A DNA stretch of 61,257 bases from positions 1 through 61,257 of the forward strand of contig CAIPQK010000034.1 in assembly GCA_903867185.1 (NCBI GenBank), read 5' to 3'. Positions 6,692-44,345 of the stretch are shown here, one piece after another. A program made the position numbers and the translations under genes. Below the pieces are notes generated by a model. The model was not told where the DNA came from, made no database searches, and saw only the letters and a list, made by a program, of their open reading frames with translations. Every line of letters begins with the position of its first letter. Position 1 is the first letter of the stretch. The DNA is from an uncultured Candidatus Nemicrothrix sp. GTDB lineage: Bacteria; Actinomycetota; Acidimicrobiia; Acidimicrobiales; Acidimicrobilacustridaceae.

Positions 6692-6748
6692 GCCCTGAGT
6701 GAGAATGCGTCCGATCCCTCACGCCCCTTCTGCAGGATGGGCGCTCCT

Positions 6749-8716
6749 ATGACGGTTTCCGCATCCCCCGGATCGATCTCCACTGAACCCCCCAACGTTC
6801 AGGCCGAGCGTTCTGCCCCGATACCTCACCTCCCGGGACTCGATGGTGTCCGAGGCCTCGCGGTTATCGGCGTACTCCTCTTCCACGGCGGTTTCGTCTG
6901 GGCCAAAGGCGGCTTCCTCGGCGTCTCTACCTTCTTCACGCTTTCCGGCTTTCTGATTACAAACCTCCTCGTTCGAGAGTTCGAGGGTTCGTCGTCACTC
7001 AACCTTCTCCGATTCTGGGGCCGGCGACTTCGCCGCCTCATGCCGGCCGCACTCGCAGCAATAGCGCTGATTGGTCTCGTCTGGTGGCGGATCGGCACAC
7101 CCGAACAACTTGGGTCACTGCGTGGCGACATGCTGTCGTCACTTGGGTACGTAGCGAACTGGCGACTGTGGACGTCGGGAATCAGTTACGGATCACTCTT
7201 TTCGCAACCGACTCCGTTCCAACATTTTTGGTCCCTCGCCATCGAAGAGCAGTTCTACTTAGTCTTCCCTCTGGTCGTGCTCGCGTGCATGCGAATCGGA
7301 GGCCGACGACTGCTCACCTTTGTGTGTGCGGTTGCCGCGGTTGCCTCGATCGCTCTGATGTGGCTGCAACGATCAGATTTCGATCGGATCTATTACGGCA
7401 CCGATACACGAGTCGCTGAATTGCTCTTCGGAGTGCTGCTCGCACTCTGGTGGTCGCGTCGTGATCGAAACACAACGAAGCGGACTTCATTGCAACCAGC
7501 GTGGGATGCATTTGGCGTCGCTGCGACAATCGGAATTCTTGCAGCGTGGTACTTGATCAACGAGATGTCGCCGAGACTGGCAAAAGGCGGGTTGCCAATC
7601 TACGCCGCACTTTCCACGCTTCTCATCTACACCGCAACCCGGCCCGGCCTGGTCTCGCGTCTCTTTTCCAATTCCGCACTGCGCTGGGCCGGACTTCTGT
7701 CCTACGGCCTTTATCTGTATCACTGGCCGATTTTTCTTGTGCTGTCACAAGATCGAACTGGGCTGTCGACCGCACCACTCTTTGTTCTCCGAATGGCCGT
7801 AACGCTTGGACTCTCACTGCTTTCCTATTTCTTCCTCGAGATGCCCATACGACGCCGCTCCCTCCTCACTTCAACTCGGTCGGCTGCAACTGCGGCGTTT
7901 GCTGGCATTTTCACTGTTGTGCTGTGCGCGTTTGCCGTCACACTCCACACGCCGAAGAGTTCGGTTCCCTACGCAAACATGAAAGTGACCGGTTTCGGCC
8001 ACACCCTCGCAGAACTCCATCCAACCAAACGCCCAGATCCATCCACCGGCAAGCCGGCGACCGTGTGGATCATCGGCGACTCGGGTGGAATGGATGAATC
8101 TCCGGCACTCGCTGCCGCGATGCAAGCCACCGGTTCAACCCGATTTGTTTTCGGAGCCGGCCCGGGGTTCGGGTTGACCGTTGGCATCGACTGGCGCAAA
8201 GACTTTCGGGAAGAGATCGAGAGAGATCATCCCGACGTTGCGGTCATCATGGTTGGCGGGTGGGACACCAAATTTCTCATCAAGAACGGCAAAGCTGCGT
8301 ACGAGAAGATTGTCGATGAAGCGATCTCCCTACTCACCGATAATGGAATCAAAATTCTCTTGTTGCCGATCATGCCGGGCGGAAATTTCGACGTCACGAC
8401 GACAAATCAAATCTTTGCCGAAGTTGCCGCACGTCACCCTGGGATGGTCGACAATCCGTCGGTCGACTCTGCCCTGAGGGCGCCAGACGGATCGACTCCC
8501 CGTTACTGGATCGATACCGACGGAACAGTCCATCTGCTGCGCAAAGCCGACGGTTGGCATCTCTGCCAAGAGGGCGCTCGCAATCTTGCGTCGCTTATCG
8601 TCGATCGACTCGCCGAACTTGGCTGGTCGCCACCAGTCATCGCAGACTGGGAAGACGGATCGTGGCAGCAAGCGTTCCAATTCAATGACCCTGTTGGTGT
8701 CTGTGACGGTATTTGA
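6749..8716 (+). CDS. Acyltransferase-3 / SGNH O-acyltransferase (paralogue 1)
   Basis: The 655-residue protein has an N-terminal integral-membrane acyltransferase-3 domain of about ten helices, followed by a C-terminal SGNH hydrolase-like domain. Acyltransferase-3 marks are LDGVRGLAVIGVLLFHGG near residue 30, with the catalytic-type His, and FFTLSGFLIT. The SGNH part has the nucleophile motif IIGDSGG and a late DGWH supplying Asp/His. Proteins of this OafA/OatA-like design move an acyl group across the membrane onto cell-surface glycans. The ATG at 6749 has AGGATGGG upstream; an in-frame ATG at 6737 adds four residues and lacks a site. Its stop overlaps the start of the AftD-like gene (TGATG), so the two are coupled. 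Confidence 0.9.
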   Translation: MTVSASPGSISTEPPNVQAERSAPIPHLPGLDGVRGLAVIGVLLFHGGFVWAKGGFLGVSTFFTLSGFLITNLLVREFEGSSSLNLLRFWGRRLRRLMPAALAAIALIGLVWWRIGTPEQLGSLRGDMLSSLGYVANWRLWTSGISYGSLFSQPTPFQHFWSLAIEEQFYLVFPLVVLACMRIGGRRLLTFVCAVAAVASIALMWLQRSDFDRIYYGTDTRVAELLFGVLLALWWSRRDRNTTKRTSLQPAWDAFGVAATIGILAAWYLINEMSPRLAKGGLPIYAALSTLLIYTATRPGLVSRLFSNSALRWAGLLSYGLYLYHWPIFLVLSQDRTGLSTAPLFVLRMAVTLGLSLLSYFFLEMPIRRRSLLTSTRSAATAAFAGIFTVVLCAFAVTLHTPKSSVPYANMKVTGFGHTLAELHPTKRPDPSTGKPATVWIIGDSGGMDESPALAAAMQATGSTRFVFGAGPGFGLTVGIDWRKDFREEIERDHPDVAVIMVGGWDTKFLIKNGKAAYEKIVDEAISLLTDNGIKILLLPIMPGGNFDVTTTNQIFAEVAARHPGMVDNPSVDSALRAPDGSTPRYWIDTDGTVHLLRKADGWHLCQEGARNLASLIVDRLAELGWSPPVIADWEDGSWQQAFQFNDPVGVCDGI

Positions 8717-11700
8717 TGTCAAACACTGATCTCGGCGTAGCCCCAAAGAATCAATCGAGCGCCGACGCTCCGGTTCACTCCTCGATGAGACGCTTTGACC
8801 GCTGGACCTTTCTCGTTCTCGGACTGCTTGCGTACATTCCTTTTCTCCTTACGTCCCCAGGAGAAATCTCGGCCGACACGAAGGCTTATCTCCTCCTCGA
8901 CCCGGGGAAGTTCCTTGAACGAGTCCCATTCCTTTGGGACTCGCACATAGATGCGGGAACCGTCACACACCAGAACATCGGGTATCTGTTTCCATTAGGA
9001 CCCTGGTATTGGATGTTCAAAACCATTGGTGTGCCGATATGGATCGCGGAACGATTGTGGTTTGGCACACTCCTTTTTGCCGCCGGAGCAGGAACGCTCT
9101 GGATGCTTCGCAAACTCGGATTGCGGGGCCCAGGTGCTGCCGTAGCGGCGTTCACCTACATGCTCAGCCCATACCTCCTGGCCTACATGGGGCGAACCTC
9201 GGTCATTCTCACACCGTGGTGTGCCCTTCCGTGGTTAATAGGTCTGATGATCTGCGCGCTGCGGGAACGAACGTGGCGAGCGCCGGTGCTCTTTGCACTG
9301 ATCGTCACTGTTATGGCCGGCACGAACGCGAGTTCGGTCATTTTTGTTCTTCTAGGACCGCTTCTACTCGTCCCGTTTGCAATTTGGATCACCCACGAAA
9401 CCGATGTTCAGAATGCGTCTCGCTCATTGGTGCGAATCGCGGTCACGACCGGACCAGCTCAGCTTTGGTGGCTATGCGGCCTCTTCATCCAAGGGAAATA
9501 CGGACTTCCTATTCTGCAGCTCACGGAAACCGTTGAAACCGTCGCCCAAACATCAACCTCACCTGAAGCGCTTCGCGGACTCGGTTACTGGTACTTCTAC
9601 GGAAAAGATGGTCTTGCCGGTTGGACGGAATCTGGAGCGCTCTACACGACGACACTCGTCATGCTTGCTCTTTCGTTTGTGCTTCCGTTACTCGGATTAC
9701 TCGGCGCGGTTCTCACACGATGGAAGTACCGCGCCTATTTCGTCACACTTATTCTCGTTGGCATGGTCTTTGCCATCGGCACTTACCCCTACAAGGACCC
9801 ATCACCTGTTGGCGCAATCATCAAGTTCACAACATCACTTGAGGTTGGATTCGCGCTGCGAAATTCTCCACGCATTCTCCCCCTCGTTGCCATTGGCCTC
9901 GCCGCACTCATTGCGTCGCTCGTCGATGCGCTGGTGCCCGCGGTCCTGCGGAGGTTCCACTCCCCGCTCAATCGACGACTCGCGCTGGCTCTCCCTCTTG
10001 GAATTATCTGCATCGCCATCCTCAATCTTCCCCCGCTCTGGACTGGGGGTCTTGTTCAGTCCGACCTCAAATTCCCCGAGACCATTCCTTCCTATTGGAC
10101 CGACGCAGCGACGTGGCTCGATGCACAAAGCAGCGATCTCCGAGTCCTCGAACTTCCAGGAGCCGACTTCGGGGCTTATCGGTGGGGCGAAACGCAGGAC
10201 CCACTCACACCCGGTCTCATCGATCGGCCATGGATCGGTCGTGAGATCACGGCCTATGGAACACCCGCAACCGTTGACCTTCTGCGAGCACTCGACCACA
10301 CCCTTCAAGAAGGCGTTGGCGAAACCGCCGCGGTAGCGGGAGTGGCTCGACTCTTTTCTGCATCTGATGTTCTCCTGAGACTCGACAGCCAATATGAGCG
10401 TTACCGAGGCCCCCGACCTTCCGACCTCTGGACGCAATTTGGCGGCACTACTCCTTCAAACGGATTGGGTACTCCGACAACATTTGGCGCGCCTGTCCTC
10501 AACACGCCCGATCCCCGCCAACCCATGGTCGATGAACAGCACATCGCTGATTCATCGGGAAGCAACGCCACCCCACCGCTGGCTGCGTATCCGGTCGATT
10601 CCGTCCGATCGATTGTTCGCTCCGAACTCACCAACAACCCAACCGTCCTTTTCGGCGATGGTGACGGAATCGTCGAAGCAGCAACTTGGGATCAACTCCC
10701 CCGAGAACGCGCGCTCTTCTACGCAGCAACAGCGAATGCGTCATCAACTCTCCTCAGTGGCATTCGCTCCTCGCAACCAAATCTCGTCATCACCGACACG
10801 AACCGCAAGCGAGCTCAGCGCTGGGGAACGACCCGAGAGAACAACGGAGCAACAGAAACTGCCACCTCCACTCCGCTTGTTAAAGACCCGAAAGACACTC
10901 GACTTGATCTCTTCCCGGGGGAAACGACGAGCGACCAATCCGTCGCCTGGTTTGGGGACGACGTAGCAAATGTTCGCGCAACCACTTATGGCAACATCGT
11001 TGCTTACTCTTCAGAGGTGCGGCCATCGAACGCAATCGATGGAGATCCCCGCACCGCATGGACCACGGGCGGATTTAGCGACGTCCTCGGCGATCGACTG
11101 GTTATCGATTACACCCACCCCGTTACCGCCGACCATGTCGATCTTCTGCAGTCCCAAGGCAACCGTTGGATAACCAAAGCAACGGTGCTTCTCGATGGCG
11201 TGCCGGTGACAACAGTCGATATGACCGATGCCTCGTTCACCAGTCCTGGCCAAAGAGTCGAACTTGGCGGCCAACGGAAGTTCTCGTCGCTCGGTATTCG
11301 CATCGACGATGCAAATATCACTGGACTTGCCACGTGGCTCGGGTTCTCTAATGTCGGATTCCGAGAAGTGACTGTTCCCGGAGTTTCGGCACAAGAGTGG
11401 ATCGTGGCTCCGTCTTCTGGCGTCGACGATCTCGCACCTTCGGCGTCAAACGTTGCTTATTTGTTCTCACGGCTTCGATCGAATCCCATCGAGGGATTCC
11501 GCCAAGACACTGAACTCCAACTTCGACGGATCTTCCATGTTGGCTCCGATAGCCGATTCACAACCTATGGGCGAGCTCGACTCAGTGGCGGTGTCGATGG
11601 TGCAGTCATCGACACCGCAATCGGCCGCCCTGGCCTTGCTGCAGGCTTTCCAACGGTGGGAGGCACGGACTATCTCAGTGGAGATCTTGCTTCCCGACCA

Positions 11701-13158
11701 TCATCAGCACTCGATGGTGATCTCACCACATCGTGGACAACGAAATTCGATGACCAAACGGGAGCAACCGCAACAATCACTGCTCCTTCCGCTGTCAGCT
11801 TCGATCATCTCAACCTCACGGTCGTGAACGACACAGAGCATTCGGTTCCGACAGCAATCACTCTCACTTTGGATGATGGTTCTACCAAGACCGTCGCGGT
11901 TCCCGAGATTGCTACGTCAGATCAAATTGGCAGCATTGCGACGGTCAATGTTCCTACTGGTTCCACATCCTCAAAGGTGATCCGAGTCTCCGTCGCTGGC
12001 GAACGTCCTGTCACGACGAAGGAATACTTCACTGGTGGGCAACGAGTTCTCCCAATCGCGATCGCCGAGTTTGGAATTCCAGCGACCGTGGCCCCGCTTC
12101 CGCAGTCACTGCCAGCGACATGTCGCACCGACCTCGTCTCAATCGATGGCACGCAACAGTCGTTTGCGCTTAGCGGTTCGGTAGAAGACGCCATCAATCG
12201 TCAACCGATTGATCTGCTCCCCTGTTCGGATCTCCGGGACTACGCGGCAATCCCTTCGAACTCCCTCGCGGTCGGCGACCACCGGCTTGTCTCGGCGAAG
12301 GGATTGGACAGCGGTATCGATATCGATTCGATCCAGCTCTCTTCAGTTCCATCGACCGAAATTTCCACGGCGACCACCCCACCATCCACAACGGTCACCA
12401 CTCAAGGAACAAACTCCTACAAGGTCGACGTCGCAAATGCTTCGGCTCCGTTTTGGTTGGTTCTCGGACAATCGCTTTCTGACGGTTGGAAAGCAACAGT
12501 CCGTGGAGGCACTTCGCTCGGGTCACCAACGCTTATCGATGGGTTCGCGAGCGGATGGCTTGTCGACCCATCGGTAACCGGCTCTACATTCACGGTCGAC
12601 ATCACCTGGGCACCACAGAAAATTGTGTGGGCTGGTCTCGCCATCTCGACCCCATGGTTCATCGGACTTTGCCTCTGTGCCCTTGCAGTTGTCTGGAGAC
12701 GTCGGCGTTCTGTTCGAGTGCTCGCCGATGGCACGAATCCAATTCTGGTTTCTTCGGAACTTGTGAACGACACGAGCAACTCTGTGCGAATCGGTCTGAT
12801 CCTCGGAATCACCGCCCTCTCCGCTCTCATCGGCGGCCTCGGAGTAGCAATCGCGATGGCAATCATCGCCTCGCTTTCGCTTTGGACGAAACGACGAGTG
12901 GCTATTGCGACCCTTGCCGTTCTCGGCTCGATCGGCGGGATCATTGTTCTCTACACCGGGCTCCAATTCGGACATGAGTACCGGACCGGAGTCGAGTGGC
13001 CTTCAGGATTCTTCATTGCTCATCAACTCGGGTTGATTGCCGTGCTTTCCGTAGTGTTCGAAAGCTTGTCCCGATGGTGTATTCGCAGTCGATCAACCAG
13101 CAAACAAATCGCTAGCGAAGCCAACCAAATCAACGAAGGCTCGGCGCAGAGTCGATAA
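8716..13158 (+). CDS. aftD: AftD-like alpha-(1->3)-arabinofuranosyltransferase
   Basis: This 1480-residue protein matches the AftD (DUF3367) architecture: an N-terminal GT-C membrane domain with many helices, an early acidic pair in EISADTKAY after the first helix, a long periplasmic region and a C-terminal helix bundle (residues about 1290-1450). The outer part carries two galactose-binding/F5-8-C-like modules, visible as NAIDGDPRTAWTT and SALDGDLTTSWTT. In Mycobacterium AftD adds alpha-1,3 arabinofuranose branches from decaprenyl-phosphoryl-arabinose to arabinan. The start at 8716 overlaps the upstream stop (TGATG); an earlier in-frame TTG at 8713 is less likely. The 3' end overlaps the opposite-strand GT-C gene by 136 bp. 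Family call is strong; the donor and acceptor here are inferred. Confidence 0.85.
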   Translation: MSNTDLGVAPKNQSSADAPVHSSMRRFDRWTFLVLGLLAYIPFLLTSPGEISADTKAYLLLDPGKFLERVPFLWDSHIDAGTVTHQNIGYLFPLGPWYWMFKTIGVPIWIAERLWFGTLLFAAGAGTLWMLRKLGLRGPGAAVAAFTYMLSPYLLAYMGRTSVILTPWCALPWLIGLMICALRERTWRAPVLFALIVTVMAGTNASSVIFVLLGPLLLVPFAIWITHETDVQNASRSLVRIAVTTGPAQLWWLCGLFIQGKYGLPILQLTETVETVAQTSTSPEALRGLGYWYFYGKDGLAGWTESGALYTTTLVMLALSFVLPLLGLLGAVLTRWKYRAYFVTLILVGMVFAIGTYPYKDPSPVGAIIKFTTSLEVGFALRNSPRILPLVAIGLAALIASLVDALVPAVLRRFHSPLNRRLALALPLGIICIAILNLPPLWTGGLVQSDLKFPETIPSYWTDAATWLDAQSSDLRVLELPGADFGAYRWGETQDPLTPGLIDRPWIGREITAYGTPATVDLLRALDHTLQEGVGETAAVAGVARLFSASDVLLRLDSQYERYRGPRPSDLWTQFGGTTPSNGLGTPTTFGAPVLNTPDPRQPMVDEQHIADSSGSNATPPLAAYPVDSVRSIVRSELTNNPTVLFGDGDGIVEAATWDQLPRERALFYAATANASSTLLSGIRSSQPNLVITDTNRKRAQRWGTTRENNGATETATSTPLVKDPKDTRLDLFPGETTSDQSVAWFGDDVANVRATTYGNIVAYSSEVRPSNAIDGDPRTAWTTGGFSDVLGDRLVIDYTHPVTADHVDLLQSQGNRWITKATVLLDGVPVTTVDMTDASFTSPGQRVELGGQRKFSSLGIRIDDANITGLATWLGFSNVGFREVTVPGVSAQEWIVAPSSGVDDLAPSASNVAYLFSRLRSNPIEGFRQDTELQLRRIFHVGSDSRFTTYGRARLSGGVDGAVIDTAIGRPGLAAGFPTVGGTDYLSGDLASRPSSALDGDLTTSWTTKFDDQTGATATITAPSAVSFDHLNLTVVNDTEHSVPTAITLTLDDGSTKTVAVPEIATSDQIGSIATVNVPTGSTSSKVIRVSVAGERPVTTKEYFTGGQRVLPIAIAEFGIPATVAPLPQSLPATCRTDLVSIDGTQQSFALSGSVEDAINRQPIDLLPCSDLRDYAAIPSNSLAVGDHRLVSAKGLDSGIDIDSIQLSSVPSTEISTATTPPSTTVTTQGTNSYKVDVANASAPFWLVLGQSLSDGWKATVRGGTSLGSPTLIDGFASGWLVDPSVTGSTFTVDITWAPQKIVWAGLAISTPWFIGLCLCALAVVWRRRRSVRVLADGTNPILVSSELVNDTSNSVRIGLILGITALSALIGGLGVAIAMAIIASLSLWTKRRVAIATLAVLGSIGGIIVLYTGLQFGHEYRTGVEWPSGFFIAHQLGLIAVLSVVFESLSRWCIRSRSTSKQIASEANQINEGSAQSR

Positions 13159-14471
13159 CGGTTATTGCCCAAGCTGGCGGCCGCCACAACAGCGACAAGC
13201 GCAGGCCAAAGCAGAACCGGAAAGAGTGTCAATCTTCGTCGCCACGCGAGAATCGTTCCCGCAACTGCGAACAGCAGGACAACGTAGTACTCAGCCAGTG
13301 CAACCATGGTCTGCCTGAAGTCTCGATTTTCGACATTGATATCAAAGCGCGCTGTGCCAATCGGGTCGTAAAGATTGAACATTCTGAGAGTTCGCAGAGG
13401 CGCTACAACCAAGAGGCGGGTCTTATGGGTCGAGATGTAGTCCGTCGCCCTCGCGCGTTTTATCGCGTCACGTTCAGATTCATCGAGCAGGGTCCCATCG
13501 GCCGCTATAGGTTCCGGTTCCGCACAGAAACGCTCCCAATAACCCTTTTTCGGACCGTAATAAGCAGCATCACAATTTGTCTGGGCAAGAAGCGTTCCTG
13601 TGGGAGACAAGTAAATCGGCTTGGCGAACGAGGTCATATTCCTGATTAACCACGGGGCAAGAATCGCTAGACAAATCGTGATCACGATGCCCACATCTCT
13701 CAAGAGCATCTTCCACTGCAGTCTGCGACTAAGTAACGCAGTGAAGACCAGCAGAGGACCATAGGCAAGCAATTCCGTGCGGAGCAGTCCACCGATTCCG
13801 GAAAGTACGCCGATCAAAAGCGCTAGCCGCAACGTGGGATGTCGCCACCATCGGACAGCAACAATTGTCATCAGCGGGACGAATACGGTCACGAGCGATT
13901 CACTCATCAGTGACCAGTCGTTCAGCCACAAGAATCCGTACACAGCGGCGATAAAGGCTGACGCGACACCTACCGTCTCTCCGAATAGTTCTCGGCCCGC
14001 TAATCCAATGAGTACGACACCTAACGAACCAAAGAGAAGACCAATCATCCGATGTTCATTGATGCTTTTAAACCCAATTCGTGACGAGATTGACAAAATG
14101 AATGGCCAAAGCGGCGGATGAGCAGCGGTTGCCATCTCCGTTCCAGGCGGCACGACCTTCGCTTTAGAGATGACCGATCCATCAGGCTGGACAACATCAA
14201 CTTTGGGACAGTCCTCTATGGCCGAGGCGATGAACGAATAGTTCTGATCTCCGTTTCCTTTCAGGCCCCATGAAAAACAGTGCCCAAACTGAAAGTAGAA
14301 GGGATTGATGTACCCCTTACCTTTCGCCATCAAATTCGCCGTGTCGTGATAAAAAACGGCGTCGCCCGAAAGATTCGCAGTACGTCCCTCCCAAAGAAAC
14401 GTTCCGAATCGCACGGCGAAGCCCAAGACCCCGGCCAGAGCAATGCCAATGGCAAACGCCTTGGTCGACAT
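13023..14471 (-). CDS. GT-C membrane glycosyltransferase (PMT/ArnT-like, paralogue 1)
   Basis: The roughly 482-residue multi-spanning protein has the GT-C layout: first helix, then an acidic loop motif NLSGDAVFYHDTANLM, several hydrophobic helices, and a soluble segment with LDESERDAIKRARATDYISTHK. GT-C enzymes use polyprenyl-phosphate sugars on the outer membrane face. A paralogue at 16989-18377 shares GGDAVYYHEASNLL and LDESQRDVVVRARATDYISNHK. I chose ATG 14471 because the protein then begins with the first membrane helix; an in-frame ATG at 14588 would add 39 residues with no helix and leave only 42 bp before the divergent gene. No ribosome-binding site decides it. The C-terminal 45 codons overlap the aftD end on the other strand. 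Confidence 0.8.
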   Translation of the reverse strand: MSTKAFAIGIALAGVLGFAVRFGTFLWEGRTANLSGDAVFYHDTANLMAKGKGYINPFYFQFGHCFSWGLKGNGDQNYSFIASAIEDCPKVDVVQPDGSVISKAKVVPPGTEMATAAHPPLWPFILSISSRIGFKSINEHRMIGLLFGSLGVVLIGLAGRELFGETVGVASAFIAAVYGFLWLNDWSLMSESLVTVFVPLMTIVAVRWWRHPTLRLALLIGVLSGIGGLLRTELLAYGPLLVFTALLSRRLQWKMLLRDVGIVITICLAILAPWLIRNMTSFAKPIYLSPTGTLLAQTNCDAAYYGPKKGYWERFCAEPEPIAADGTLLDESERDAIKRARATDYISTHKTRLLVVAPLRTLRMFNLYDPIGTARFDINVENRDFRQTMVALAEYYVVLLFAVAGTILAWRRRLTLFPVLLWPALVAVVAAASLGNNRYRLCAEPSLIWLASLAICLLVDRLRIHHRDKLSNTTESTAINPS

Positions 14472-14630
14472 CGACGCAGATGGTCGATTGTGGCGCTCAC
14501 TGGTCACGGCCACACAACTTAGGACCTCGGCGGCCGACGAACCTGCCATCGGATACATCGATGACAAACCCACGACTGGTACGGTCATCCGAGCACGTAG
14601 AGGTACGAAACGCCGGTTCGAGGAGGACCA

Positions 14631-16067: not shown

Positions 16068-16075
16068 TTCTGCGC

Positions 16076-16996
16076 CTAGTACGCGTCGAAATCTAAAAAT
16101 CCGAATTCGCCAAGTTCAAACTGGTCTCGATCAAAGTTTTTCGCGAATGGATGCAGAACAAGCGACAACGGCGACGGCATCATTTTCTGAGGCAGCGGAA
16201 TACCTCGTAGACGCAGTGCGGGAGACCGACCCCAGTGAATGACCATAGGGGCCTTGTGATGGCGACCTACAACAGCGGCAACGCGGCCAACCGGCAGTGG
16301 TGCCACCGAACGCCGTGCCAGAACACCAAGAATCACGCCAAAAGGGATGTTCGATACATGGGTCCTTGTTGAGACGACGACAAGGTCATCAGAACTATGA
16401 ATGCTGTAGGAGTGCCCCGGTCGCTGAAGACGCCATTTCAGGAGTTCCGGCGTCCACACTGGTGCGAAGCCCGAGGTCGATGTACGCGAGAACTCGCCAG
16501 TAACGAGGCCATCGATACTTTCGATGGTCGAATCGTCGATAACGGTCGATTGAAAGCCCGTCGCTCGTCCAATCGCTGGAACCATTGTGACGGGAAGAGG
16601 CGAAAGCGCTCTCCAGCCCAGCGTTGCAACCATTCTCGGGGCCGAATTCGCATTGGCAACACCCAGAATGCCGTCGAAACCTTGTTCTGTTCCTCGCATG
16701 TACGAGTCCTCGACGGTTCGCCGAAATGCACCCGATCCGCGTGCATCTGGGTCGACAGCTAAATCAACACCGACGCCGAGCACTCTCTCCTCACCCGAAA
16801 TCGATCGGTAACGATTCGGGATCAGAGCGTAATTACCTATGCGCTTCTCGCCCTCTTCGACTCGCCCAACAGCAGCCTGGCCCACAGGGTTCAGGTCGTA
16901 GTACCAACGAAGGGAGGAAACAGTAAGCGGATCGGAGTGTTCGAAAACATGATTCAGGAGCGCTGCGGTGCGCTCAAGTTCCAGTTCGTTAGTCAT
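16076..16996 (-). CDS. GNAT-fold acyltransferase
   Basis: The 306-residue protein carries an N-terminal GNAT domain: GNYALIPNRYR and VLGVGVDLAVDPDARGSGAFRRTVED form the acyl-CoA binding beta-strand and loop (family Q/R-x-x-G-x-G/A), followed by GILGVANANSAPRMVATLGW. A second half of about 150 residues is less typical and may be a degenerate GNAT domain or substrate-binding region. Similar proteins occur with polysaccharide genes, where they N- or O-acylate sugars; that is inference. Its ATG overlaps the end of the upstream GT-C gene by 8 bp, so it belongs to the three-gene minus-strand operon deacetylase - glycosyltransferase - GNAT. Confidence 0.75.
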   Translation of the reverse strand: MTNELELERTAALLNHVFEHSDPLTVSSLRWYYDLNPVGQAAVGRVEEGEKRIGNYALIPNRYRSISGEERVLGVGVDLAVDPDARGSGAFRRTVEDSYMRGTEQGFDGILGVANANSAPRMVATLGWRALSPLPVTMVPAIGRATGFQSTVIDDSTIESIDGLVTGEFSRTSTSGFAPVWTPELLKWRLQRPGHSYSIHSSDDLVVVSTRTHVSNIPFGVILGVLARRSVAPLPVGRVAAVVGRHHKAPMVIHWGRSPALRLRGIPLPQKMMPSPLSLVLHPFAKNFDRDQFELGEFGFLDFDAY

Positions 16997-18377
16997 TCAA
17001 CGTCGCCAGTTCATCGTGCCCGCTCGTAGGTTGCTTCGAGCCTTTGCATCGGCCTTCGACCACAGACCAGAGGACATCGAAGGTGATCGCCGCGAAGAGA
17101 ACGATCGAGACTTCAGCTGCCGTTCGGTATCGCGTGGTGCCGAAGGCTGTGGCCGCTGTGATTGTTGCAAGCACGACCCAAAGTCCGACGACCAGAACTG
17201 GTTGACGTCGGCGCCACTGGATCACGGCTCCAGCAACTGCCGCTGGCGCCAAGATGAGATATTCGAAGAAACCCAGTTTCGCTGGAATCGAGGCGCGACC
17301 CTCTCCAATATCGAGACGCACCTGTTCAAGTGGCTCATAAAAACCCCAGACTCGTCCGATCCTGGCTGGAACCACAACAGCAAGAAGGCGGGCCTTGTGG
17401 TTCGAGATGTAGTCGGTGGCTCTCGCCCGAACCACGACATCTCGTTGCGACTCATCAAGCAACTCGCCATTCGGCCCATACGGCTGAGGTTCGCCACATC
17501 GCAAACTCCAGTAGCCCACGTGCGATCCGTAGTACGTATCGTCACAGTTGGCTTGGACCATCACCGTGCCTGTGCCGTCGGAGAGCGTGACCCGTTCGCT
17601 CATCACCATGTTGTTTCGAATCACCCAGGGAGCAAGGACGGCGCAACACACCACCCCGGCAATTGCGTAGCGGAGCAATCTCTCTTTCCATGGAAGCGGT
17701 GCTTTCCATAGGACGACCGCCGCCACGACGGGAAGAAACAACAAAAGCTCGGCGCGTGAGAGTGCCGCAAGCGCTCCGGCAACAGCAAAGATTGCCGCAT
17801 TTCCGCGACTTGGATTCCTAACGAATCGCAATCCAAAAATCGTTGCGACAAATGTGAAGAAGATTGCGGCAGTCTCTGACATCACAAGCGTGTCATTGAT
17901 CCAGATGTTGGCGTACACCGCCGTGAGAAACGCGGCGATGAGACCCGTGCGTTCATTCCTCCAAGACCGTCCTAAGAGTCCCGCCAAGATGATCGATGCG
18001 CAACCGAGCAAAATGGATGCCATTTGGTGAGCGGCAAGGGACCGAAATCCAAGGAACGAAGTGGCTCCGAGATACATCACGTACACAGGAGGATGCCCCG
18101 CTGTCGGTTCCACATGTCCAACGGGTGTGACTACCTTGACAACTCGACCGTCAGCGAGAGTTACCTGTTCCTTCGCACCAAAGAGATAGCGATAGGGATC
18201 TATGAAACCTTTGCCGTCTGCGAGCAGATTGGAAGCCTCGTGGTAGTACACCGCGTCGCCTCCCAATTCGAGAGTGGTGTGCGGCGACCACAAGGCCATA
18301 TCAGCTAGACGGATTCCAAATCCGACCGCCACGATCAGAATGATTCCGATCCAAAAACGCGAAAGTCGACGGGTCAT
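16989..18377 (-). CDS. GT-C membrane glycosyltransferase (paralogue 2)
   Basis: The 462-residue protein begins with a membrane helix (residues about 8-25) and the GT-C acidic loop motif ELGGDAVYYHEASNLL, then about ten further helices. The soluble insert has the paired cysteines ANCDDTYYGSHVGYWSLRC and LLDESQRDVVVRARATDYISNHKARLL, matching the paralogue at 13023-14471. It should transfer a sugar from a polyprenyl-phosphate donor to an extracytoplasmic glycan or protein. Its ATG overlaps the stop of the polysaccharide deacetylase (ATGA) and its stop overlaps the GNAT start, so the three are co-translated. Sugar and acceptor are unknown. Confidence 0.85.
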   Translation of the reverse strand: MTRRLSRFWIGIILIVAVGFGIRLADMALWSPHTTLELGGDAVYYHEASNLLADGKGFIDPYRYLFGAKEQVTLADGRVVKVVTPVGHVEPTAGHPPVYVMYLGATSFLGFRSLAAHQMASILLGCASIILAGLLGRSWRNERTGLIAAFLTAVYANIWINDTLVMSETAAIFFTFVATIFGLRFVRNPSRGNAAIFAVAGALAALSRAELLLFLPVVAAVVLWKAPLPWKERLLRYAIAGVVCCAVLAPWVIRNNMVMSERVTLSDGTGTVMVQANCDDTYYGSHVGYWSLRCGEPQPYGPNGELLDESQRDVVVRARATDYISNHKARLLAVVVPARIGRVWGFYEPLEQVRLDIGEGRASIPAKLGFFEYLILAPAAVAGAVIQWRRRQPVLVVGLWVVLATITAATAFGTTRYRTAAEVSIVLFAAITFDVLWSVVEGRCKGSKQPTSGHDELATLND

Positions 18378-19231
18378 ACTGCGCCGATTTCAGATCCGTT
18401 TGAATCCTGCGTTGGATCGAATACCGGAAGATCAACGAGAGTTGCGGCAATTTCGCCGAGCGGTTTTCCTACACCTGCCCGCAATGTCGCCTCGACACGC
18501 TTCAACATGTTTTGGCGATTGAGCCACCCGACGCGGCTGATCAGCCAACCTCCGTGTTCGTACACATAGAACTTCTCGTCGGGGTCAAACTCCCACGGGT
18601 GACAATAGGTCCACAGCACAGTTTCGGAATGGGCGTTTCGCACACCGCGACGGCGTACCGCCGCCGGCAACAAACGAAGGTAGGTGCCTCCAAGAAACGG
18701 GATCGTGAGCGGTCCCAACTTCATTACTGGACTAGGGAGTTCGATCAAACCCGACGGCCAGAGAAATGGCGTTGTCGGTGCGCCAGGCCAGCCATAAAGC
18801 GGACTACGGGCTGGAAGCACACTCGTTGACACGAGAAAGCCAAGTTCAGAGAGAATCTCTGGAACCCATGGCGTACTCGGGATAAGCGAATACTGAGGAG
18901 CCCGGTAGATCGTGATTTCCTTGCCCGCGAGTTCGGAGAGAATCCGTTTCGCTTCGAGATTGTCTGACCGGAATCGATCGGGCCCAAGTAAATCATTGGG
19001 AATGTGGTGGAGCCCATGCACACCCAGTTCGTGGCCGTCGGCCACCACGCGACCGATGAGCTCGGGATGTCGAGAGGCCAACTCTCCGACACAGAAAAAT
19101 GTTCCCCGTATCTTCAATTCACGGAGCCGATCAAGGATCCGATCGGTGACGAGCCCAACACGTTCTTCTTGGACGCTGGGGTCGGTGCGAAGATCCTCGA
19201 AATCGAGGGTGAAACTGACCGACCGATCCAT
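18374..19231 (-). CDS. Polysaccharide deacetylase (NodB fold)
   Basis: The 285-residue protein shows SFTLDFED at residues 6-13, where Asp10 and its neighbours form the catalytic/metal motif, and GHELGVHGLHH at 66-76, giving zinc-binding histidines. IYRAPQYS and TYCHPWEFD are the next conserved motifs. The D-F-E-D form resembles the XrtA-associated exopolysaccharide deacetylases. It removes acetyl groups from N-acetylated sugars. No signal peptide is visible, so it probably acts on cytoplasmic lipid-linked sugars. A TTG three codons earlier overlaps the TACACT -10 (19240-19245), which makes the ATG at 19231 the better start. It is the first gene of a three-gene operon. Confidence 0.85.
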   Translation of the reverse strand: MDRSVSFTLDFEDLRTDPSVQEERVGLVTDRILDRLRELKIRGTFFCVGELASRHPELIGRVVADGHELGVHGLHHIPNDLLGPDRFRSDNLEAKRILSELAGKEITIYRAPQYSLIPSTPWVPEILSELGFLVSTSVLPARSPLYGWPGAPTTPFLWPSGLIELPSPVMKLGPLTIPFLGGTYLRLLPAAVRRRGVRNAHSETVLWTYCHPWEFDPDEKFYVYEHGGWLISRVGWLNRQNMLKRVEATLRAGVGKPLGEIAATLVDLPVFDPTQDSNGSEIGAV

Positions 19232-19239
19232 GGTTGCCA

Positions 19240-19245
19240 AGTGTA
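19240..19245 (-). promoter_or_regulatory. -10 box TACACT, near-leaderless
   Basis: On the minus strand TACACT ends 8 nt before the ATG of the deacetylase gene, predicting a leader of 0-2 nt. No Shine-Dalgarno sequence could fit. Confidence 0.45.
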
Positions 19246-19334
19246 GGCATCAGACCTTGAATGCCTGAGCCCGCCCCGAGCCGGCTCAGTGCTCATGGCA
19301 AGATGAGACCTCAGTTCGACCCGATGGGAGATCG

Positions 19335-21293
19335 ATGGCGCAGCCGCAGACCGATATCGCGCCTGACGCATCGACCCATTCGTCTTCGAGGCGGTGGCGG
19401 CCAGGGCTCGACGGACTTCGGGCGCTGGCCGTTCTCGGCGTCATGGCCTACCACGAGCCCAACGTGAAGCTGCCGGGTGGGTTTTTGGGAGTCGACCTCT
19501 TTTTCGTGCTCTCTGGATTCCTCATCACCGGTCTCCTTCTCGAAGAGCGGCATCGCTCTGAAACGCTTTCACTTCGCTCATTTTGGAATCGGCGCGCTCG
19601 TCGACTGCTTCCTGCACTCGCTGCTCTCCTCCTTGCAGTCGTCATCGCAACAACAATCCTTGGTGATGTTTCTCAACGGCACGATTTACCGGGAGGCGTT
19701 CTCTCGGCAGTGCTCTACGTCTCTAATTGGAATCTGATTGCTCACCACCAGAGCTACTTCGATCAGTTCGCCTCTCTCTCACCGCTCCAACATCTTTGGA
19801 GTCTCGCAATAGAAGAGCAGTTCTATCTGGTCTGGCCACTCGTGGTCATCGCGTGTCTCAGTCGAAGCAGACAACTTCTCATCGCGGTAACTGCTGTTGC
19901 AACAGTCATAAGTATCGGTCTGATGATGTTTTTTCTTGGTAGTGGCGACCCATCACGCAGTTACTACGGAACCGATACCCGAGCATTCGCCTTGCTCATT
20001 GGAGCGTTAGGCGCGCTCTACGCTTGGCATTTGCGGCCATCTGGGAGAAAGGCACTCTTGGCCAGTGTCTTCGGGCTCGGGGCCCTCACCGTGTCTCTCT
20101 TTTTCATCCATGACAACGCCCGATGGATGTACCGCGGCGGCTTTGTTCTCTTTGCTGTGCTGGCTCTCGGCTTGATCGTTCTCGCTTCGGGCAACAACGT
20201 CGTCTCCAAAACGATGTCGCATCCGATCCTTCGCAAGATTGGTTTCCTTTCCTACGCGCTCTATCTGTGGCACTGGCCGATCCGAGTGTTTGCAACTGAC
20301 ACTCGTCTCAGACTCCCCGACACTGGTGTTGGAACCTTTGCCGGAATCGCAGTTCGTCTGGCACTCACGTTTGCAGCTGCATGGCTGTCAATGGAACTTA
20401 TAGAAAGATGGTTCCGACATTCGACTCTCGGAGTCGCCAGATTCGGCATCGCATGGGCCGTGATTGGTTCCATTCTGGTTGCATCTGCTTTCATCGCAGC
20501 ACCCTCAGTCGGCTCAACAGTCGCTGCAAACTTTGGTACTGATCAGGCCGCTCAACGACAGAAAAATCTCCAACCTCAGGGCAACTCAGCGCGCCCCACA
20601 CTCATGATCGTTGGCGACTCGGTAGCGATCACAGTCGATAGCGGAATTCGACGTGTCATTGGGCCAAATGTGTCGGTAGTCGGTGGAGCTGAGCTTGGAT
20701 GTGCGCTTCTCACTTCGCCGAAAGTCATGACGTTCACCGGCAAATGGGAATCGACGGGTTCCGCGTGCCCCGATCACAACGCGTATTGGTCGCAACTTGT
20801 AGTTGCCCAGAATCCCGATGTCGTCGTCATGCTGATGGGCGCTTGGGATCTCTATGCACGTGATTGGGGTAACGGTGCAGTCGCCCCGGGTGATCCTGAG
20901 TTCGATCAGCACTATCAGCAGGCCATGAACGATGCACTAGAGACACTTTCGGCGAAAGGCGCTGAAATCATCGTGCTCACTACGCCATGCTTTGAGCCGT
21001 TGCCAGGCGAAAAAGCCGGCCCTCAGTACGACCTCGAACGCGTCCAACGCATCGCTCAACTCCAGCGAGAATCGGTTGAAGCATTCAACAGTTCGGATCC
21101 CGCTGCGTCAGCGTCGATCGTTGACCTGCAATCGATCACCTGCGACAACGGGTTTACGCAAACGCGCGACGGGGTCGCGTGGCGTCCAGATGGCGTCCAT
21201 TTCTCTATTGAGGGGTCGCAGGTCGCCGCACGATGGGTTCTCGCCTCGCTTCCTGCTTCTGCTCGATCTCGCCTCAACCTGCCGAACAATTGA
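19335..21293 (+). CDS. Acyltransferase-3 / SGNH O-acyltransferase (paralogue 2)
   Basis: The 652-residue protein has the acyltransferase-3 domain with LDGLRALAVLGVMAYHEP near residue 27 and GVDLFFVLSGFLITGLLLEE, about ten helices, FQHFW-like LQHLWSLAIEEQFYLVWPL, then an external SGNH domain with IVGDSVAI and a late RPDGVHFSIEG giving the Asp/His pair. It should O-acetylate or otherwise acylate an outer glycan. The ATG follows GGGAG by 6 nt. The next gene is a third paralogue in the same direction with a 108-bp gap, and the divergent neighbour is the deacetylase, so acylation and deacylation genes sit back to back. Confidence 0.9.
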   Translation: MAQPQTDIAPDASTHSSSRRWRPGLDGLRALAVLGVMAYHEPNVKLPGGFLGVDLFFVLSGFLITGLLLEERHRSETLSLRSFWNRRARRLLPALAALLLAVVIATTILGDVSQRHDLPGGVLSAVLYVSNWNLIAHHQSYFDQFASLSPLQHLWSLAIEEQFYLVWPLVVIACLSRSRQLLIAVTAVATVISIGLMMFFLGSGDPSRSYYGTDTRAFALLIGALGALYAWHLRPSGRKALLASVFGLGALTVSLFFIHDNARWMYRGGFVLFAVLALGLIVLASGNNVVSKTMSHPILRKIGFLSYALYLWHWPIRVFATDTRLRLPDTGVGTFAGIAVRLALTFAAAWLSMELIERWFRHSTLGVARFGIAWAVIGSILVASAFIAAPSVGSTVAANFGTDQAAQRQKNLQPQGNSARPTLMIVGDSVAITVDSGIRRVIGPNVSVVGGAELGCALLTSPKVMTFTGKWESTGSACPDHNAYWSQLVVAQNPDVVVMLMGAWDLYARDWGNGAVAPGDPEFDQHYQQAMNDALETLSAKGAEIIVLTTPCFEPLPGEKAGPQYDLERVQRIAQLQRESVEAFNSSDPAASASIVDLQSITCDNGFTQTRDGVAWRPDGVHFSIEGSQVAARWVLASLPASARSRLNLPNN

Positions 21294-21401
21294 CGAACCG
21301 CGAAAGCGCCGTCTTCACGAAGCGACAGGGAGCGTCCGAGGCCCTGTGTCAGAATCTACGAAGGCTCAACAAGCGCGAGCCAGAGGGGCAATAACGAACG
21401 C

Positions 21402-23504
21402 ATGACGGTCACGAGGGACGACCAGGGGAACCAGGCCGACGACGCTGGCGCTGACCCCATTGCTGCTGCAATTGCAGCCGCAATAATCGACGACGGCCCG
21501 ATCGATGGGGCAGCGGTAACGACAGTCAAGAAACTTGACCACATGCCCGCCCTCGACGGAATGCGCGGCCTTTTCGTCATTCTCGGTCCGATGATGTATC
21601 ACTTCGCTCCGTATTTCATCCCAGGAGGAATGTTCTCTCTCGACTTCTTTTTCGTGATGTCGAGTTTCCTCATCGTTTCTCTCGCCCTCAATGAGTGGGA
21701 CCGAACCGGGAATTTCAAAGTCGGGGCGTACGCCTCTCGTCGAGCACGTCGACTCATGCCTGCCCTGATGGTCTGTTTCGTTGTTGTCGCGTTTGCGACA
21801 GCTTTCATCATTGACCCCGCACAGATCGCAAAATGGACTTCAGGTACAACAGCGGGCATGGCTTGGGTTGCCAACTGGAAAGAAATTTTTTCCCACAACA
21901 ACTATTTCGACGCCAGCCAGTATTCGAATCCGCAGCCATTCAGGCACGTCTGGTCATTTGCAGTTGAAGAGCAGTTCTACCTCTTCGCACCGTTTTTCCT
22001 CATTCTCTGCATGCGCTGGATCGGACGACGATGGCTCACGATCCTCTCGGTAGGCGGCGCAATAGCGTCAGCTATTTGGATGTCGATTGTCTTCGATCCG
22101 AATAACCCTGCGACCCTCGCTCGTGCCTATTACGGAACTGACACTCGAGCCTTTGCACTTTTCCTCGGCATCGCCATGGCAGCAGTGTTTTCTCGCTGGG
22201 GCCCACCACGCACTCGTTGGGGTCACTGGCTCACGCAATTCCTAGGATTGATTTCCTCAATCGTCTTCGTCATTTTTCTCTTCACTGAGAGCGAAAAGTC
22301 GGCATGGATGTTTGAATATGGCGGATTCTTTCTCGTCGCGCTCCTTGCCGTCTTCATGACGAGGTCAGTCACCACCAAAACCGGTTGGATGCATTGGTTC
22401 TACAAAAACCGGTTTTTGATGTGGGCAGGTCGTCTCGGCTTCGGGCTCTACCTGTATCACTGGCTTGTCTACATCGTTGTTGATAGCGACAAGTCCCCAG
22501 ATAAACCCGGCCTCAACTCTTTCAAGGACATGGCGCTTGGTTTCGGACTCACATTCCTTCTGGCTTGGCTGAGTTACAAATACATCGAGAAGCCTTTCCT
22601 CAAGGGACGCTGGCCCGGTTGGAAGTTCGCTGCAGGCATGGGCGGTGCAGTAATCCTCGCGCTCGCCTTCTTGCTGTATGCCAATACCGTCCGCGCTCCG
22701 AAGGCATCTGCGGCCAACAACCCACTCGCAGTCCAACAACAAGGGGCGACTCCTATCGCCCTAGGCGAAGGCAAAGCGTGCGTGGCCCCCGCAGGCAGTA
22801 ATCCAACGCGCGTGTTGGTCGTCGGTGATTCGGTGATGTATCAGATGGGACTTGCTCTCTCTGATTGGTGCGCCGATCATCCGGGCCAAATCATGGTCTT
22901 CAACGAAGCACACCTCGGCTGCGGGACGACACGCGGTGGCGAAAAACTTTATGAAGAAGGTCCAGGATCTATGGGCGCGGTCTGCGCAACGTGGGCTGAT
23001 CCAGTCGATCCTCGTCTGGTGCCTGATCCCGAGGTGGTTTCGTGGGTCTCTGCCATTGATCTCTATCGACCCGATGTCGTACTCAGCTACGCGAGCGCAT
23101 GGGATTCAATCGACCGGAAAGTTCCACAGCTCGGTGACAAATGGCTTCGTCCCGGCGACGCGTCCTACGACGCGTTTTTGAAATCTGAATACAGCGAGGC
23201 GCTCAAGGTCCTCTCCGCTCATGACACGAGCGTTGTTTGGCTCGTATCACCGCACCTCGACCGAACGAGCCAATTCAATAGTCCCGAACGAGTCGATCGG
23301 ATGAATGCCATCGTGCTTCCCCTTGTCAAAGGACTCCCTCGTTTCACCGTGATCGATTACCAGAAGTACTTGGGGTCCACCGGAGGAGCGAAAGACAAAT
23401 CCATACGTGCCGATGGCGTCCACATACGCGAAGACCAGCTGCAGACTGTTGCCGATTGGTTGGCCCCGCAGCTCGTTGACGCGAAAACACAGAAGTCGAA
23501 CTGA
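21402..23504 (+). CDS. Acyltransferase-3 / SGNH O-acyltransferase (paralogue 3)
   Basis: The 700-residue protein has an unusual hydrophilic, alanine-rich N-terminal tail of about 45 residues before LDGMRGLFVILGPMMYHFAP and LDFFFVMSSFLIVSLALNE. WSFAVEEQFYLFAPFF and YGTDTRAFALFLG follow, as in the two paralogues. The SGNH domain begins at VVGDSVMYQ and ends with RADGVHIRED. Compared with the paralogues the usual LSGF is MSSF. Only a weak ribosome-binding site (AGAGGGG about 13 nt upstream) precedes the ATG. A strong hairpin follows the stop. It is the last gene of the envelope locus. Confidence 0.88.
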   Translation: MTVTRDDQGNQADDAGADPIAAAIAAAIIDDGPIDGAAVTTVKKLDHMPALDGMRGLFVILGPMMYHFAPYFIPGGMFSLDFFFVMSSFLIVSLALNEWDRTGNFKVGAYASRRARRLMPALMVCFVVVAFATAFIIDPAQIAKWTSGTTAGMAWVANWKEIFSHNNYFDASQYSNPQPFRHVWSFAVEEQFYLFAPFFLILCMRWIGRRWLTILSVGGAIASAIWMSIVFDPNNPATLARAYYGTDTRAFALFLGIAMAAVFSRWGPPRTRWGHWLTQFLGLISSIVFVIFLFTESEKSAWMFEYGGFFLVALLAVFMTRSVTTKTGWMHWFYKNRFLMWAGRLGFGLYLYHWLVYIVVDSDKSPDKPGLNSFKDMALGFGLTFLLAWLSYKYIEKPFLKGRWPGWKFAAGMGGAVILALAFLLYANTVRAPKASAANNPLAVQQQGATPIALGEGKACVAPAGSNPTRVLVVGDSVMYQMGLALSDWCADHPGQIMVFNEAHLGCGTTRGGEKLYEEGPGSMGAVCATWADPVDPRLVPDPEVVSWVSAIDLYRPDVVLSYASAWDSIDRKVPQLGDKWLRPGDASYDAFLKSEYSEALKVLSAHDTSVVWLVSPHLDRTSQFNSPERVDRMNAIVLPLVKGLPRFTVIDYQKYLGSTGGAKDKSIRADGVHIREDQLQTVADWLAPQLVDAKTQKSN

Positions 23505-28591: not shown

Positions 28592-28727
28592 CCATGTGGG
28601 GGCGCCCTCGGGAGCGCCATTGCGGCCAAGACCTGCCTCGTGAACCCGCCCAAAGGCCGTCGATTCGTTCTATTCGCCCCGGCGTGGGAGCGTGGAGGCC
28701 GGCCAGAGCGGTCGAGGAGCGCATCTC

Positions 28728-44013: not shown

Positions 44014-44345
44014 CTTGCCACCCTTTGCTGTGTCTCGCGCGCACCCAAGAGCGGCGGAATTGCTGAATTTCTCAGCAAGGATCGGGCCCCGGCGCTGGGG
44101 CGATGCTCCTGAATCCATGTTGCAGAATCTTTACAGAAGGACCCATCTGCCGCAACGCGAGGCGACATTTGTACCCATAATTTTCCTGGCGGAGCCGAGA
44201 TCGCCTCGCGCGGGGCGATCTCAGCGACCAGTTCGTGCGTCGCAGCCCACTATCGCCGCTCAGAGCCTCTCTGATTACCGTGCGACTCACGCTCAGGGCG
44301 CTCCCCATGAGGCACCTTGCCCGCTACCGAAGCCGCGGGACTTAT
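44014..44345. other. Long non-coding region upstream of the NlpC/P60 gene
   Basis: About 330 bp separates two divergent genes. It holds three good hairpins: TTGCTGA/TCAGCAA (44060-44078, 5-nt loop), GCCCC/GGGGC (about 44086-44101) and GAGATCGCC/GGCGATCTC (44197-44222, 9-bp stem). AT-rich text at 44170-44186 (minus strand AAATTATGG) may be the minus-strand promoter, which would leave a leader of about 160 nt containing the first two hairpins. I found no match to the ydaO/c-di-AMP riboswitch core. Confidence 0.4.

What the first reader, a model, noticed from the sequence alone, without database searches (positions are those of the whole stretch)
6749..23504. Dense outer-glycan locus: AftD-like arabinosyltransferase with three acyltransferase-3/SGNH proteins, two GT-C enzymes, a deacetylase and a GNAT
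Seven envelope-modifying proteins and a GNAT lie within 17 kb. AftD is best known from mycolic-acid bacteria, yet no mycolate, decaprenyl-ribose or Emb gene is in view here. The presence of three O-acyltransferase paralogues plus a divergent deacetylase suggests tuning of acyl groups on one arabinan- or rhamnan-like polymer. This is the best candidate for an undescribed envelope system in the window.
Basis: partly seen in the sequence, partly recalled or inferred. Interest (0 to 1): 0.65.

Follow-up and report, generated by a model that had tools for sequence, protein, structure and literature searches.

The report
Putative arabinan-tailoring locus in Acidimicrobiia
A bacterium lacking three core enzymes of the tuberculosis-type cell wall still carries that wall's arabinose-donor genes, plus a gene cluster that probably builds and acylates a different arabinose-containing surface glycan.

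Summary
The block is collinear in three related loci; one sister lineage keeps AftD but has lost its neighbours. Outside the genus AftD lies near AT3 genes in 19 of 38 loci against 2 of 40 arbitrary windows, and near PMT_2 GT-C genes in 13 of 38 against 0 of 40. The missing donor pathway is elsewhere in the genome: contig C135 has adjacent DprE2, decaprenyl-phosphate phosphoribosyltransferase and DprE1 genes, all over NCBIfam cut-offs. Emb, AftA and GlfT2 give no match. I read the locus as an Emb-independent, DPA-fed system that adds arabinofuranose to an extracytoplasmic glycan and O-acylates it. The deacetylase-GNAT pair recurs in 10 of 10 genomes with the GNAT, but near AftD in only 5. Chemistry is unproven: one cultured Acidimicrobiia strain, AftD status unknown, is reported with rhamnose, ribose, mannose and galactose, no arabinose. 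Mycolate genes were not tested. New variant of a known kind.

The parts
6737..8716 (+). AT3a: acyltransferase-3 fused to an SGNH (DUF459-type) domain; overlaps the AftD start by 4 bases (probable operon)
   Evidence: PF01757 95 bits, PF04311 52 bits; R-X10-H, RXXR, GDS and D..H motifs read in the translation
8713..13158 (+). AftD-family GT-C with C-terminal carbohydrate-binding modules (1481 aa, TTG start)
   Evidence: PF11847 317 bits; PDB 6w98 E=5.6e-43 with the aligned Asp (window AftD D55) kept; that column is D in 52 of 58 aligned AftDs
13023..14588 (-). GTC1: PMT_2-type GT-C glycosyltransferase, 3' end overlapping AftD 3' end
   Evidence: PF13231 41.8 bits
14631..16067 (+).
   Evidence: PF11794 253 bits and PF03241 194 bits; 95% and 91% identical in two related loci, 53% in G015
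16076..16996 (-). GNAT N-acyltransferase
   Evidence: PF13527 in 8 of 10 homologues, best 1.9e-8; full-length match over 200 bits in 10 of 148 class genomes
16989..18377 (-). GTC2: PMT_2-like GT-C glycosyltransferase; overlaps GNAT by 8 bases
   Evidence: PF13231 24.2 bits, cut-off 26.1; homologues near the GNAT-deacetylase pair in 8 of 10 genomes
18374..19240 (-). Polysaccharide deacetylase with DUF3473 (XrtA-type); overlaps GTC2 by 4 bases
   Evidence: PF01522 and PF11959 over cut-off; TIGR03006 162 bits, cut-off 276
19335..21293 (+). AT3b: AT3-SGNH acyltransferase
   Evidence: PF01757 109 bits, PF19040 61 bits; motifs read in the translation
21402..23504 (+). AT3c: AT3-SGNH acyltransferase with R-X11-H instead of R-X10-H
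   Evidence: PF01757 62 bits; R-X11-H also in the three orthologues read, L016, L017, L096

Best explanation
The locus most likely belongs to a cell-envelope system that transfers D-arabinofuranose from decaprenyl-phosphoryl-arabinose (DPA) to an extracytoplasmic glycan and O-acylates that glycan. Steps: (1) decaprenyl-phosphate phosphoribosyltransferase, DprE1 and DprE2, encoded together on contig C135, make DPA (enzymes shown by family models; activity inferred). (2) The AftD-family GT-C uses DPA to extend or branch an arabinan-like chain and holds it with its carbohydrate-binding modules (fold and aligned Asp shown; substrate inferred). (3) The AT3-SGNH enzymes carry acyl groups from acyl-CoA across the membrane and the SGNH domain passes them to sugar hydroxyls, as SucT succinylates mycobacterial arabinan (motifs shown; acyl group and acceptor inferred). 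(4) The cytosolic-looking deacetylase and the GNAT de-N-acetylate and re-N-acylate a lipid- or nucleotide-linked amino sugar, in the manner of NodB and NodA, which a GT-C enzyme then adds outside (inferred; weakest step, possibly a different polymer). AftD is the core and its neighbours are dispensable tailoring genes, since one sister lineage kept AftD and lost them. Without Emb, AftA and GlfT2 the backbone is not mycobacterial arabinogalactan. The role of the HpaB enzyme is unknown to me; oxidation of a sugar or lipid precursor is a guess.
For: DprE1 595 bits (cut-off 500), DprE2 297.5 (250) and phosphoribosyltransferase 356.7 (207) in adjacent genes of the same genome; DprE1 E=2e-124 to solved DprE1, phosphoribosyltransferase E=1.2e-66 to 8j8j. 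Class survey of 148 genomes: AftD in 58, DprE1 over cut-off in 61, both in 48. DprE1 and DprE2, in 4 cases also UbiA, in the same fetched stretch as AftD in 6 of 38 genomes; DprE1 in 0 of 40 control windows. AT3 near AftD 19 of 38 against 2 of 40; PMT_2 GT-C 13 of 38 against 0 of 40. SucT is the only NCBIfam match of each AT3 at E<=0.001; SucT succinylates AG and LAM arabinan (PMC10503756, passages read). In L019 AT3a is gone with a short stretch that reads like its start codons before AftD, and in G145, whose AftD is 98% identical to that of L019, GTC1 to AT3c are gone between AftD and MaoC: both sides lost, AftD kept. Deacetylase near the GNAT in 10 of 10 genomes, HpaB in 6, GTC2-like genes in 8; all 10 carry AftD (hypergeometric 5e-5).
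Against: No polymer, linkage or enzyme assay is known for this organism. The one Acidimicrobiia strain whose whole-cell sugars I found (Actinospongicola, family Iamiaceae) is reported with rhamnose, ribose, mannose and galactose and no mention of arabinose (PMC12263773, passages); whether it has AftD or DprE1 is unknown. SucT scores (74-118 bits) are far below that model's cut-off of 1275. The AftD-DprE1 linkage lies in one family (f2) and may be one event. Ten AftD genomes lack an over-cut-off DprE1 and 13 have DprE1 without AftD; those counts are not corrected for relatedness. The AftD-linked enrichment does not extend to deacetylase (2 of 38), GNAT (2 of 38) or HpaB (1 of 38), and DprE2-like genes (6 of 38) are also in 3 of 40 controls. 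AT3c departs from the R-X10-H motif that PMC9833829 calls absolutely conserved.
Confidence: 0.42

Rival explanations
1. Two unrelated glycan modules lie side by side in this genus: AftD plus AT3 enzymes for one polymer, and deacetylase, GNAT, GT-C and HpaB for another lipid-linked glycan or exopolysaccharide.
For: Outside the genus the deacetylase-GNAT module was near AftD in 3 of 8 genomes only (G015, G024, G032), and only 2 of 38 AftD loci contain the deacetylase or GNAT. The deacetylase is of the XrtA exopolysaccharide type. In the G145/L019 lineage AftD persists without the module.
Against: All 10 genomes with the GNAT have AftD; the two sets are interleaved and collinear in L016, L017 and L021/L096; AT3a, on the far side of AftD, was lost in the same lineage as the GTC1-AT3c block.
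Confidence: 0.23
2. The window AftD is an AftD-fold GT-C with another donor (another polyprenyl-phosphate pentose or hexose, such as a mannose or rhamnose donor), and the DprE1 genes serve something else.
For: Ten of 58 AftD genomes lack an over-cut-off DprE1. The window AftD is a distant member: 150 bits to the M. abscessus AftD structure against 332 for its own paralogue on C190. It lacks the second Asp of the D-T-K-L-D stretch of that structure (Y59 instead). No arabinose is reported for one cultured Acidimicrobiia strain.
Against: It scores 317 bits to PF11847 and keeps the first Asp and the carbohydrate-binding modules; DPA genes co-occur and in family f2 co-locate with AftD.
Confidence: 0.18
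3. The AT3-SGNH enzymes acylate something other than the AftD product (peptidoglycan, a lipid, a small molecule), and their position is incidental.
For: AT3 proteins act on many substrates (PMC9833829 abstract and passages); CoA-linked metabolic genes flank the locus; AftD persists without AT3a in L019.
Against: AT3a overlaps the AftD start by 4 bases, and AT3 genes recur beside AftD in 19 of 38 loci outside the genus against 2 of 40.
Confidence: 0.1
4. An ordinary mycobacterial-type arabinogalactan pathway accounts for these genes.
For: DPA donor genes and AftD-family genes are present.
Against: No match to Emb PF04602, AftA_C or GlfT2 domain 3 in a genome estimated 100% complete, while each model finds C. 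glutamicum among the controls.
Confidence: 0.02

Closest known systems
AftD of Corynebacteriales (PF11847; structure 6w98)
   Same: GT-C domain, F5/8-type and CBM_AftD modules, the SPG(Q/E)IS.DTK stretch with its first Asp
   Different: Second Asp of D-T-K-L-D replaced by Tyr; no Emb, AftA or GlfT2 match in the genome; sits with AT3-SGNH and PMT_2 genes; two further AftD paralogues in the genome
SucT, arabinan succinyltransferase of mycobacteria (AT3)
   Same: AT3 domain; SucT is the only NCBIfam model matched by each of the three AT3 proteins
   Different: 74-118 bits against a cut-off of 1275; three copies here; acyl group unknown
XrtA-type polysaccharide deacetylase (TIGR03006, DUF3473)
   Same: Deacetylase plus DUF3473 domains, 162 bits
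   Different: Below the equivalog cut-off of 276; the exosortase system was not looked for; partner here is a GNAT
Galactosamine decoration of mycobacterial and corynebacterial arabinogalactan
   Same: GT-C transfer of a lipid-linked, de-N-acetylated amino sugar onto arabinogalactan is the nearest described logic for the deacetylase and GT-C (PMC9671496 passages, which says the flipping and deacetylating factors there are unidentified)
   Different: No homology of GTC1 or GTC2 to Rv3779 was tested; here a GNAT accompanies the deacetylase

Membership tests
AftD (PF11847) | GT-C_AftD domain over the Pfam cut-off | tested here: met
   317.1 bits, cut-off 26
AftD (PF11847) | C-terminal carbohydrate-binding modules | tested here: met
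   PF24607 31.8 bits (cut-off 27) and PF00754 34.3 (28.2)
AftD (PF11847) | First-loop Asp aligned with the SPDTK Asp of 6w98 | tested here: met
   D55 of the window protein; D in 52 of 58 aligned proteins. That it is the catalytic Asp of GT-CA enzymes is inferred
AftD (PF11847) | Second Asp of the D-T-K-L-D stretch of 6w98 | tested here: not met
   Y59 in the window protein; whether this Asp defines the family is not known to me
AftD (PF11847) | Arabinofuranosyl transfer from DPA | not testable with these tools
   no assay
Mycobacterial arabinogalactan pathway | DPA donor genes (phosphoribosyltransferase, DprE1, DprE2) | tested here: met
   all three over NCBIfam cut-offs on C135
Mycobacterial arabinogalactan pathway | Emb, AftA, GlfT2 | tested here: not met
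   no match in the genome; class: 3, 5 and 3 of 148
Mycobacterial arabinogalactan pathway | Mycolate synthesis and mycolyltransferases | not tested
SucT | NCBIfam NF058601 equivalog score | tested here: not met
   85.5, 117.6 and 74 bits against 1275
AT3-SGNH acyltransferases | AT3 domain over cut-off, R-X10-H, RXXR, SGNH GDS and D..H | tested here: met
   AT3a and AT3b meet all. AT3c meets all but R-X10-H, having R-X11-H
XrtA system polysaccharide deacetylase (TIGR03006) | equivalog score | tested here: not met
   162.2 bits against 276.2; the domains PF01522 and PF11959 are over cut-off
4-hydroxyphenylacetate 3-monooxygenase (HpaB) | equivalog score | tested here: not met
   TIGR02309 186 bits against 480; the Pfam domains are met

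The most novel reading that the evidence does not exclude
Acidimicrobiia have an arabinan-type envelope glycan made from DPA by AftD-family enzymes without Emb, AftA, GlfT2 or a mycomembrane. It is tailored by clustered AT3-SGNH O-acyltransferases and by a deacetylase-GNAT-GT-C module that installs an N-acylated amino sugar; the tailoring set can be lost as a whole while AftD stays. The arabinan machinery of mycobacteria would then be an elaboration of a wider actinobacterial system.
Probability: 0.28. Interest if true: 0.7.

Novelty: new variant of a known kind. Interest (0 to 1): 0.5.

Why it matters
Arabinan made from DPA is treated as a hallmark of mycolic-acid bacteria and a drug target (recalled). 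AftD and the full donor gene set in an actinobacterial class where Emb, AftA and GlfT2 are rare (3, 5 and 3 of 148 genomes) suggest that the donor pathway and AftD-type transfer are wider than the mycobacterial wall, and give a simpler setting in which to learn what AftD does alone. In the open-licence library no paper holds both 'AftD' and 'Acidimicrobi', and no paper listed for arabinosyltransferase or DprE1 with Acidimicrobiia (12 of 45 listed) or for arabinogalactan or arabinosyltransferase with Acidimicrobi (12 of 275 listed) held the class name; most subscription papers are not in that library.

Tried and rejected
Contamination as the source of the two extra AftD genes was considered and rejected: flank genes of C190 and C100 match congeners at 63-100% protein identity (DNA matches), and the C190 AftD island is present in G148, G151 and G155 and absent from the conserved setting in G145 and G152. 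AlphaFold2 models of the GNAT (mean pLDDT 41.5) and GTC2 (35.0) were too poor to use, so no fold search was run. Sequence search of solved structures found nothing for the GNAT (E up to 1) or AT3b (E up to 0.01). Whether HpaB is a 4-hydroxybutyryl-CoA dehydratase was considered and set aside: L050 lacks the cysteine that the window protein has near residue 93 (alignment; the cysteine requirement is recalled). Chemotaxonomy: one search listed papers, passages of two were read; PMC6113628 gave nothing, PMC12263773 gave one strain's sugars. The tally of AftD with DprE1 over 148 genomes is inflated by related genomes, for example the many small f14 genomes with neither.
Full report
Observation. 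The window is contig C34 of a 2.57 Mb genome in 232 contigs, estimated 100% complete and 1% contaminated. The class is taken as Acidimicrobiia from the titles of 3 of 7 related records. Nine ORFs fill 6737-23504 with little intergenic space; their families are. Gene order: AT3a>, AftD>, <GTC1, HpaB>, <GNAT, <GTC2, <deacetylase, AT3b>, AT3c>. AT3a-AftD, GTC2-GNAT and deacetylase-GTC2 overlap by 4 to 8 bases. The nearest flanking genes are mostly CoA-linked metabolic ones, so the envelope genes form a bounded block.

Conservation among close relatives. Eight distinct loci with an AftD at least 70% identical were held besides the window; two are known to be of the same genus (G023, G145) and the others are taken as such from AftD identity or the tree. 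All nine genes are collinear in three: L016 (SYBH01000008), L017 (JAPLAE010000063, Lac Pavin) and G023 (L021/L096), at 67-97% protein identity; AT3c is cut by the stretch end in L016 and L017. L015, L018 and L020 agree as far as their short contigs go. HpaB is among the most conserved (91-95%), AT3a, AftD and GTC1 the least (67-91%). Two loci depart. In L014 (identical to G145 contig C82) AftD is followed after about 170 bases by MaoC, so GTC1 to AT3c are missing there; no GNAT match was found anywhere in G145, which is 99% complete. In L019 AftD follows APH directly and AT3a is missing; the 5' side of AftD keeps a short stretch that reads like the AT3a start. The AftDs of L014 and L019 are 98% identical over 869 residues. 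If they are one lineage, it lost the neighbours on both sides and kept AftD. Neither contig shows both sides, and assembly error is not excluded.

Conservation beyond the genus. AftD occurs in 58 of 148 sampled class genomes. I took stretches of up to 20 kb around AftD (two overlapping ones for G019) from 38 of the 55 such genomes outside the window's genus; two of the 38 (G024, G032) were fetched because of their GNAT. Controls were 40 arbitrary 20-kb stretches from 10 class genomes. AT3 homologues: 19 of 38 against 2 of 40 (p=5e-6). PMT_2 GT-C: 13 of 38 against 0 of 40 (p=2.5e-5). DprE1: 6 of 38 against 0 of 40 (p=0.011). UbiA: 4 of 38 against 0 of 40 (p=0.052). DprE2-like: 6 of 38 against 3 of 40 (not significant). 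Deacetylase 2, GNAT 2 and HpaB 1 of 38 against 0 of 40 (not significant). Three other window genes used as negative checks showed no enrichment. Without the two GNAT-chosen loci AT3 is 17 of 36 and PMT_2 11 of 36. None of this is corrected for relatedness. So AftD with AT3 and GT-C is a recurrent neighbourhood; the rest is not, by this test.

The deacetylase-GNAT module. A profile of the GNAT matched 22 of 148 genomes, 10 of them full-length over 200 bits. In all 10 a deacetylase homologue lies near the GNAT (about 7 kb away in G075, next to it or one gene away in the others), in 6 an HpaB and in 8 a GTC2-like gene. All 10 genomes have AftD (p=5e-5 by hypergeometric, not corrected for relatedness). 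AftD was on the same contig within about 15 kb in 5 of 10 (G000, G023, G015, G024, G032). Methyltransferase and GT2 genes are neighbours in some of these loci. A deacetylase without an evident signal sequence plus a GNAT is the logic of NodB and NodA (recalled); that is an inference, not a test.

Donor pathway. C135 carries adjacent genes for DprE2 (297.5 bits, cut-off 250), decaprenyl-phosphate phosphoribosyltransferase (356.7, cut-off 207) and DprE1 (595.4, cut-off 500), with solved relatives of the last two at E=1.2e-66 and 2e-124. In family f2 the DprE1 and DprE2 genes lie in the same stretch as AftD in G002, G019, G043, G051, G071 and G122. Over 148 genomes AftD and over-cut-off DprE1 coincide in 48, AftD alone 10, DprE1 alone 13, neither 77. 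Emb, AftA_C and GlfT2 domain 3 have no match in the genome, and match 3, 5 and 3 of 148 class genomes. Mycolate genes were not tested.

AftD sequence. The window protein aligns with M. abscessus AftD over residues 30-808 and keeps the first Asp of SPDTKLD (D55) but has Tyr at the second (Y59). PMC12041299 (passages) says GT-CA enzymes share an essential Asp at the tip of juxtamembrane helix 1; that D55 is this residue is my inference. The column is D in 52 of 58 aligned proteins. The genome's other two AftDs (C190, C100) form a separate clade with three C190-type orthologues (support 1.0) and lack the first Asp while keeping the second.

Acyltransferases. AT3a and AT3b have R-X10-H and RXXR, which PMC9833829 (passages) describes as conserved, and a GDS and a D..H in the SGNH part. 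AT3c has R-X11-H in all four sequences read (window, L016, L017, L096), with intact SGNH motifs. SucT is the only NCBIfam match for each but far below its cut-off.

Chemistry in print. PMC12263773 (passages) gives rhamnose, ribose, mannose and galactose as whole-cell sugars of one Acidimicrobiia strain and does not contain the string 'arabin'. Its AftD and DprE1 status is unknown to me. This counts mildly against an arabinan reading for the whole class.

Reading. DPA-fed AftD transfer plus O-acylation of the product is the best account (0.42). The deacetylase-GNAT-GT-C-HpaB set is a real recurring module whose link to the same polymer is open. It is not mycobacterial arabinogalactan. I class it as a new variant of a known kind.

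Noticed in passing
L010:15627-19694 (G000:C190) and L012:956-5002 (G000:C100): Two further AftD-family genes in the same genome; the C190 one is closer to mycobacterial AftD by score (332 bits to 6w98). Both lack the first-loop Asp (L or N instead) but keep the second Asp of D-T-K-L-D; the C190 gene sits with GT2-like and GT4 genes in an island present in some congeners only.
   Followed up: partly
L014/L022:4515-4700 and L019:9685-9860: Sister lineage in which AftD is kept while AT3a (L019) and GTC1 to AT3c (L014/G145) are missing; L019 keeps what looks like the AT3a start fused before AftD.
   Followed up: partly
L014 (CAMAYJ010000082.1): A MAG contig titled Bifidobacterium breve is identical to G145:C82, a congener of the window; the record title looks wrong.
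   Followed up: partly
G026:C7 and G125:C23: Emb-family PF04602 matches in two class genomes without an AftD match or a full-length DprE1 match, so Emb-like genes also occur apart from the arabinan gene set.
   Followed up: no
G107:C3:5143-6182: DprE1 of one class genome is split over several pieces, one with three in-frame TGA codons, possibly a decayed or misassembled gene.
   Followed up: no
window 24152-54980: Of the ORFs scanned in the rest of the window most are catabolic or redox (acyl-CoA dehydrogenase, enoyl-CoA hydratase, cytochrome P450, two molybdopterin oxidoreductases, amidohydrolases), with one NlpC/P60 protein at 42904-44118 and a DEAD-box helicase at 28692-30467.
   Followed up: no
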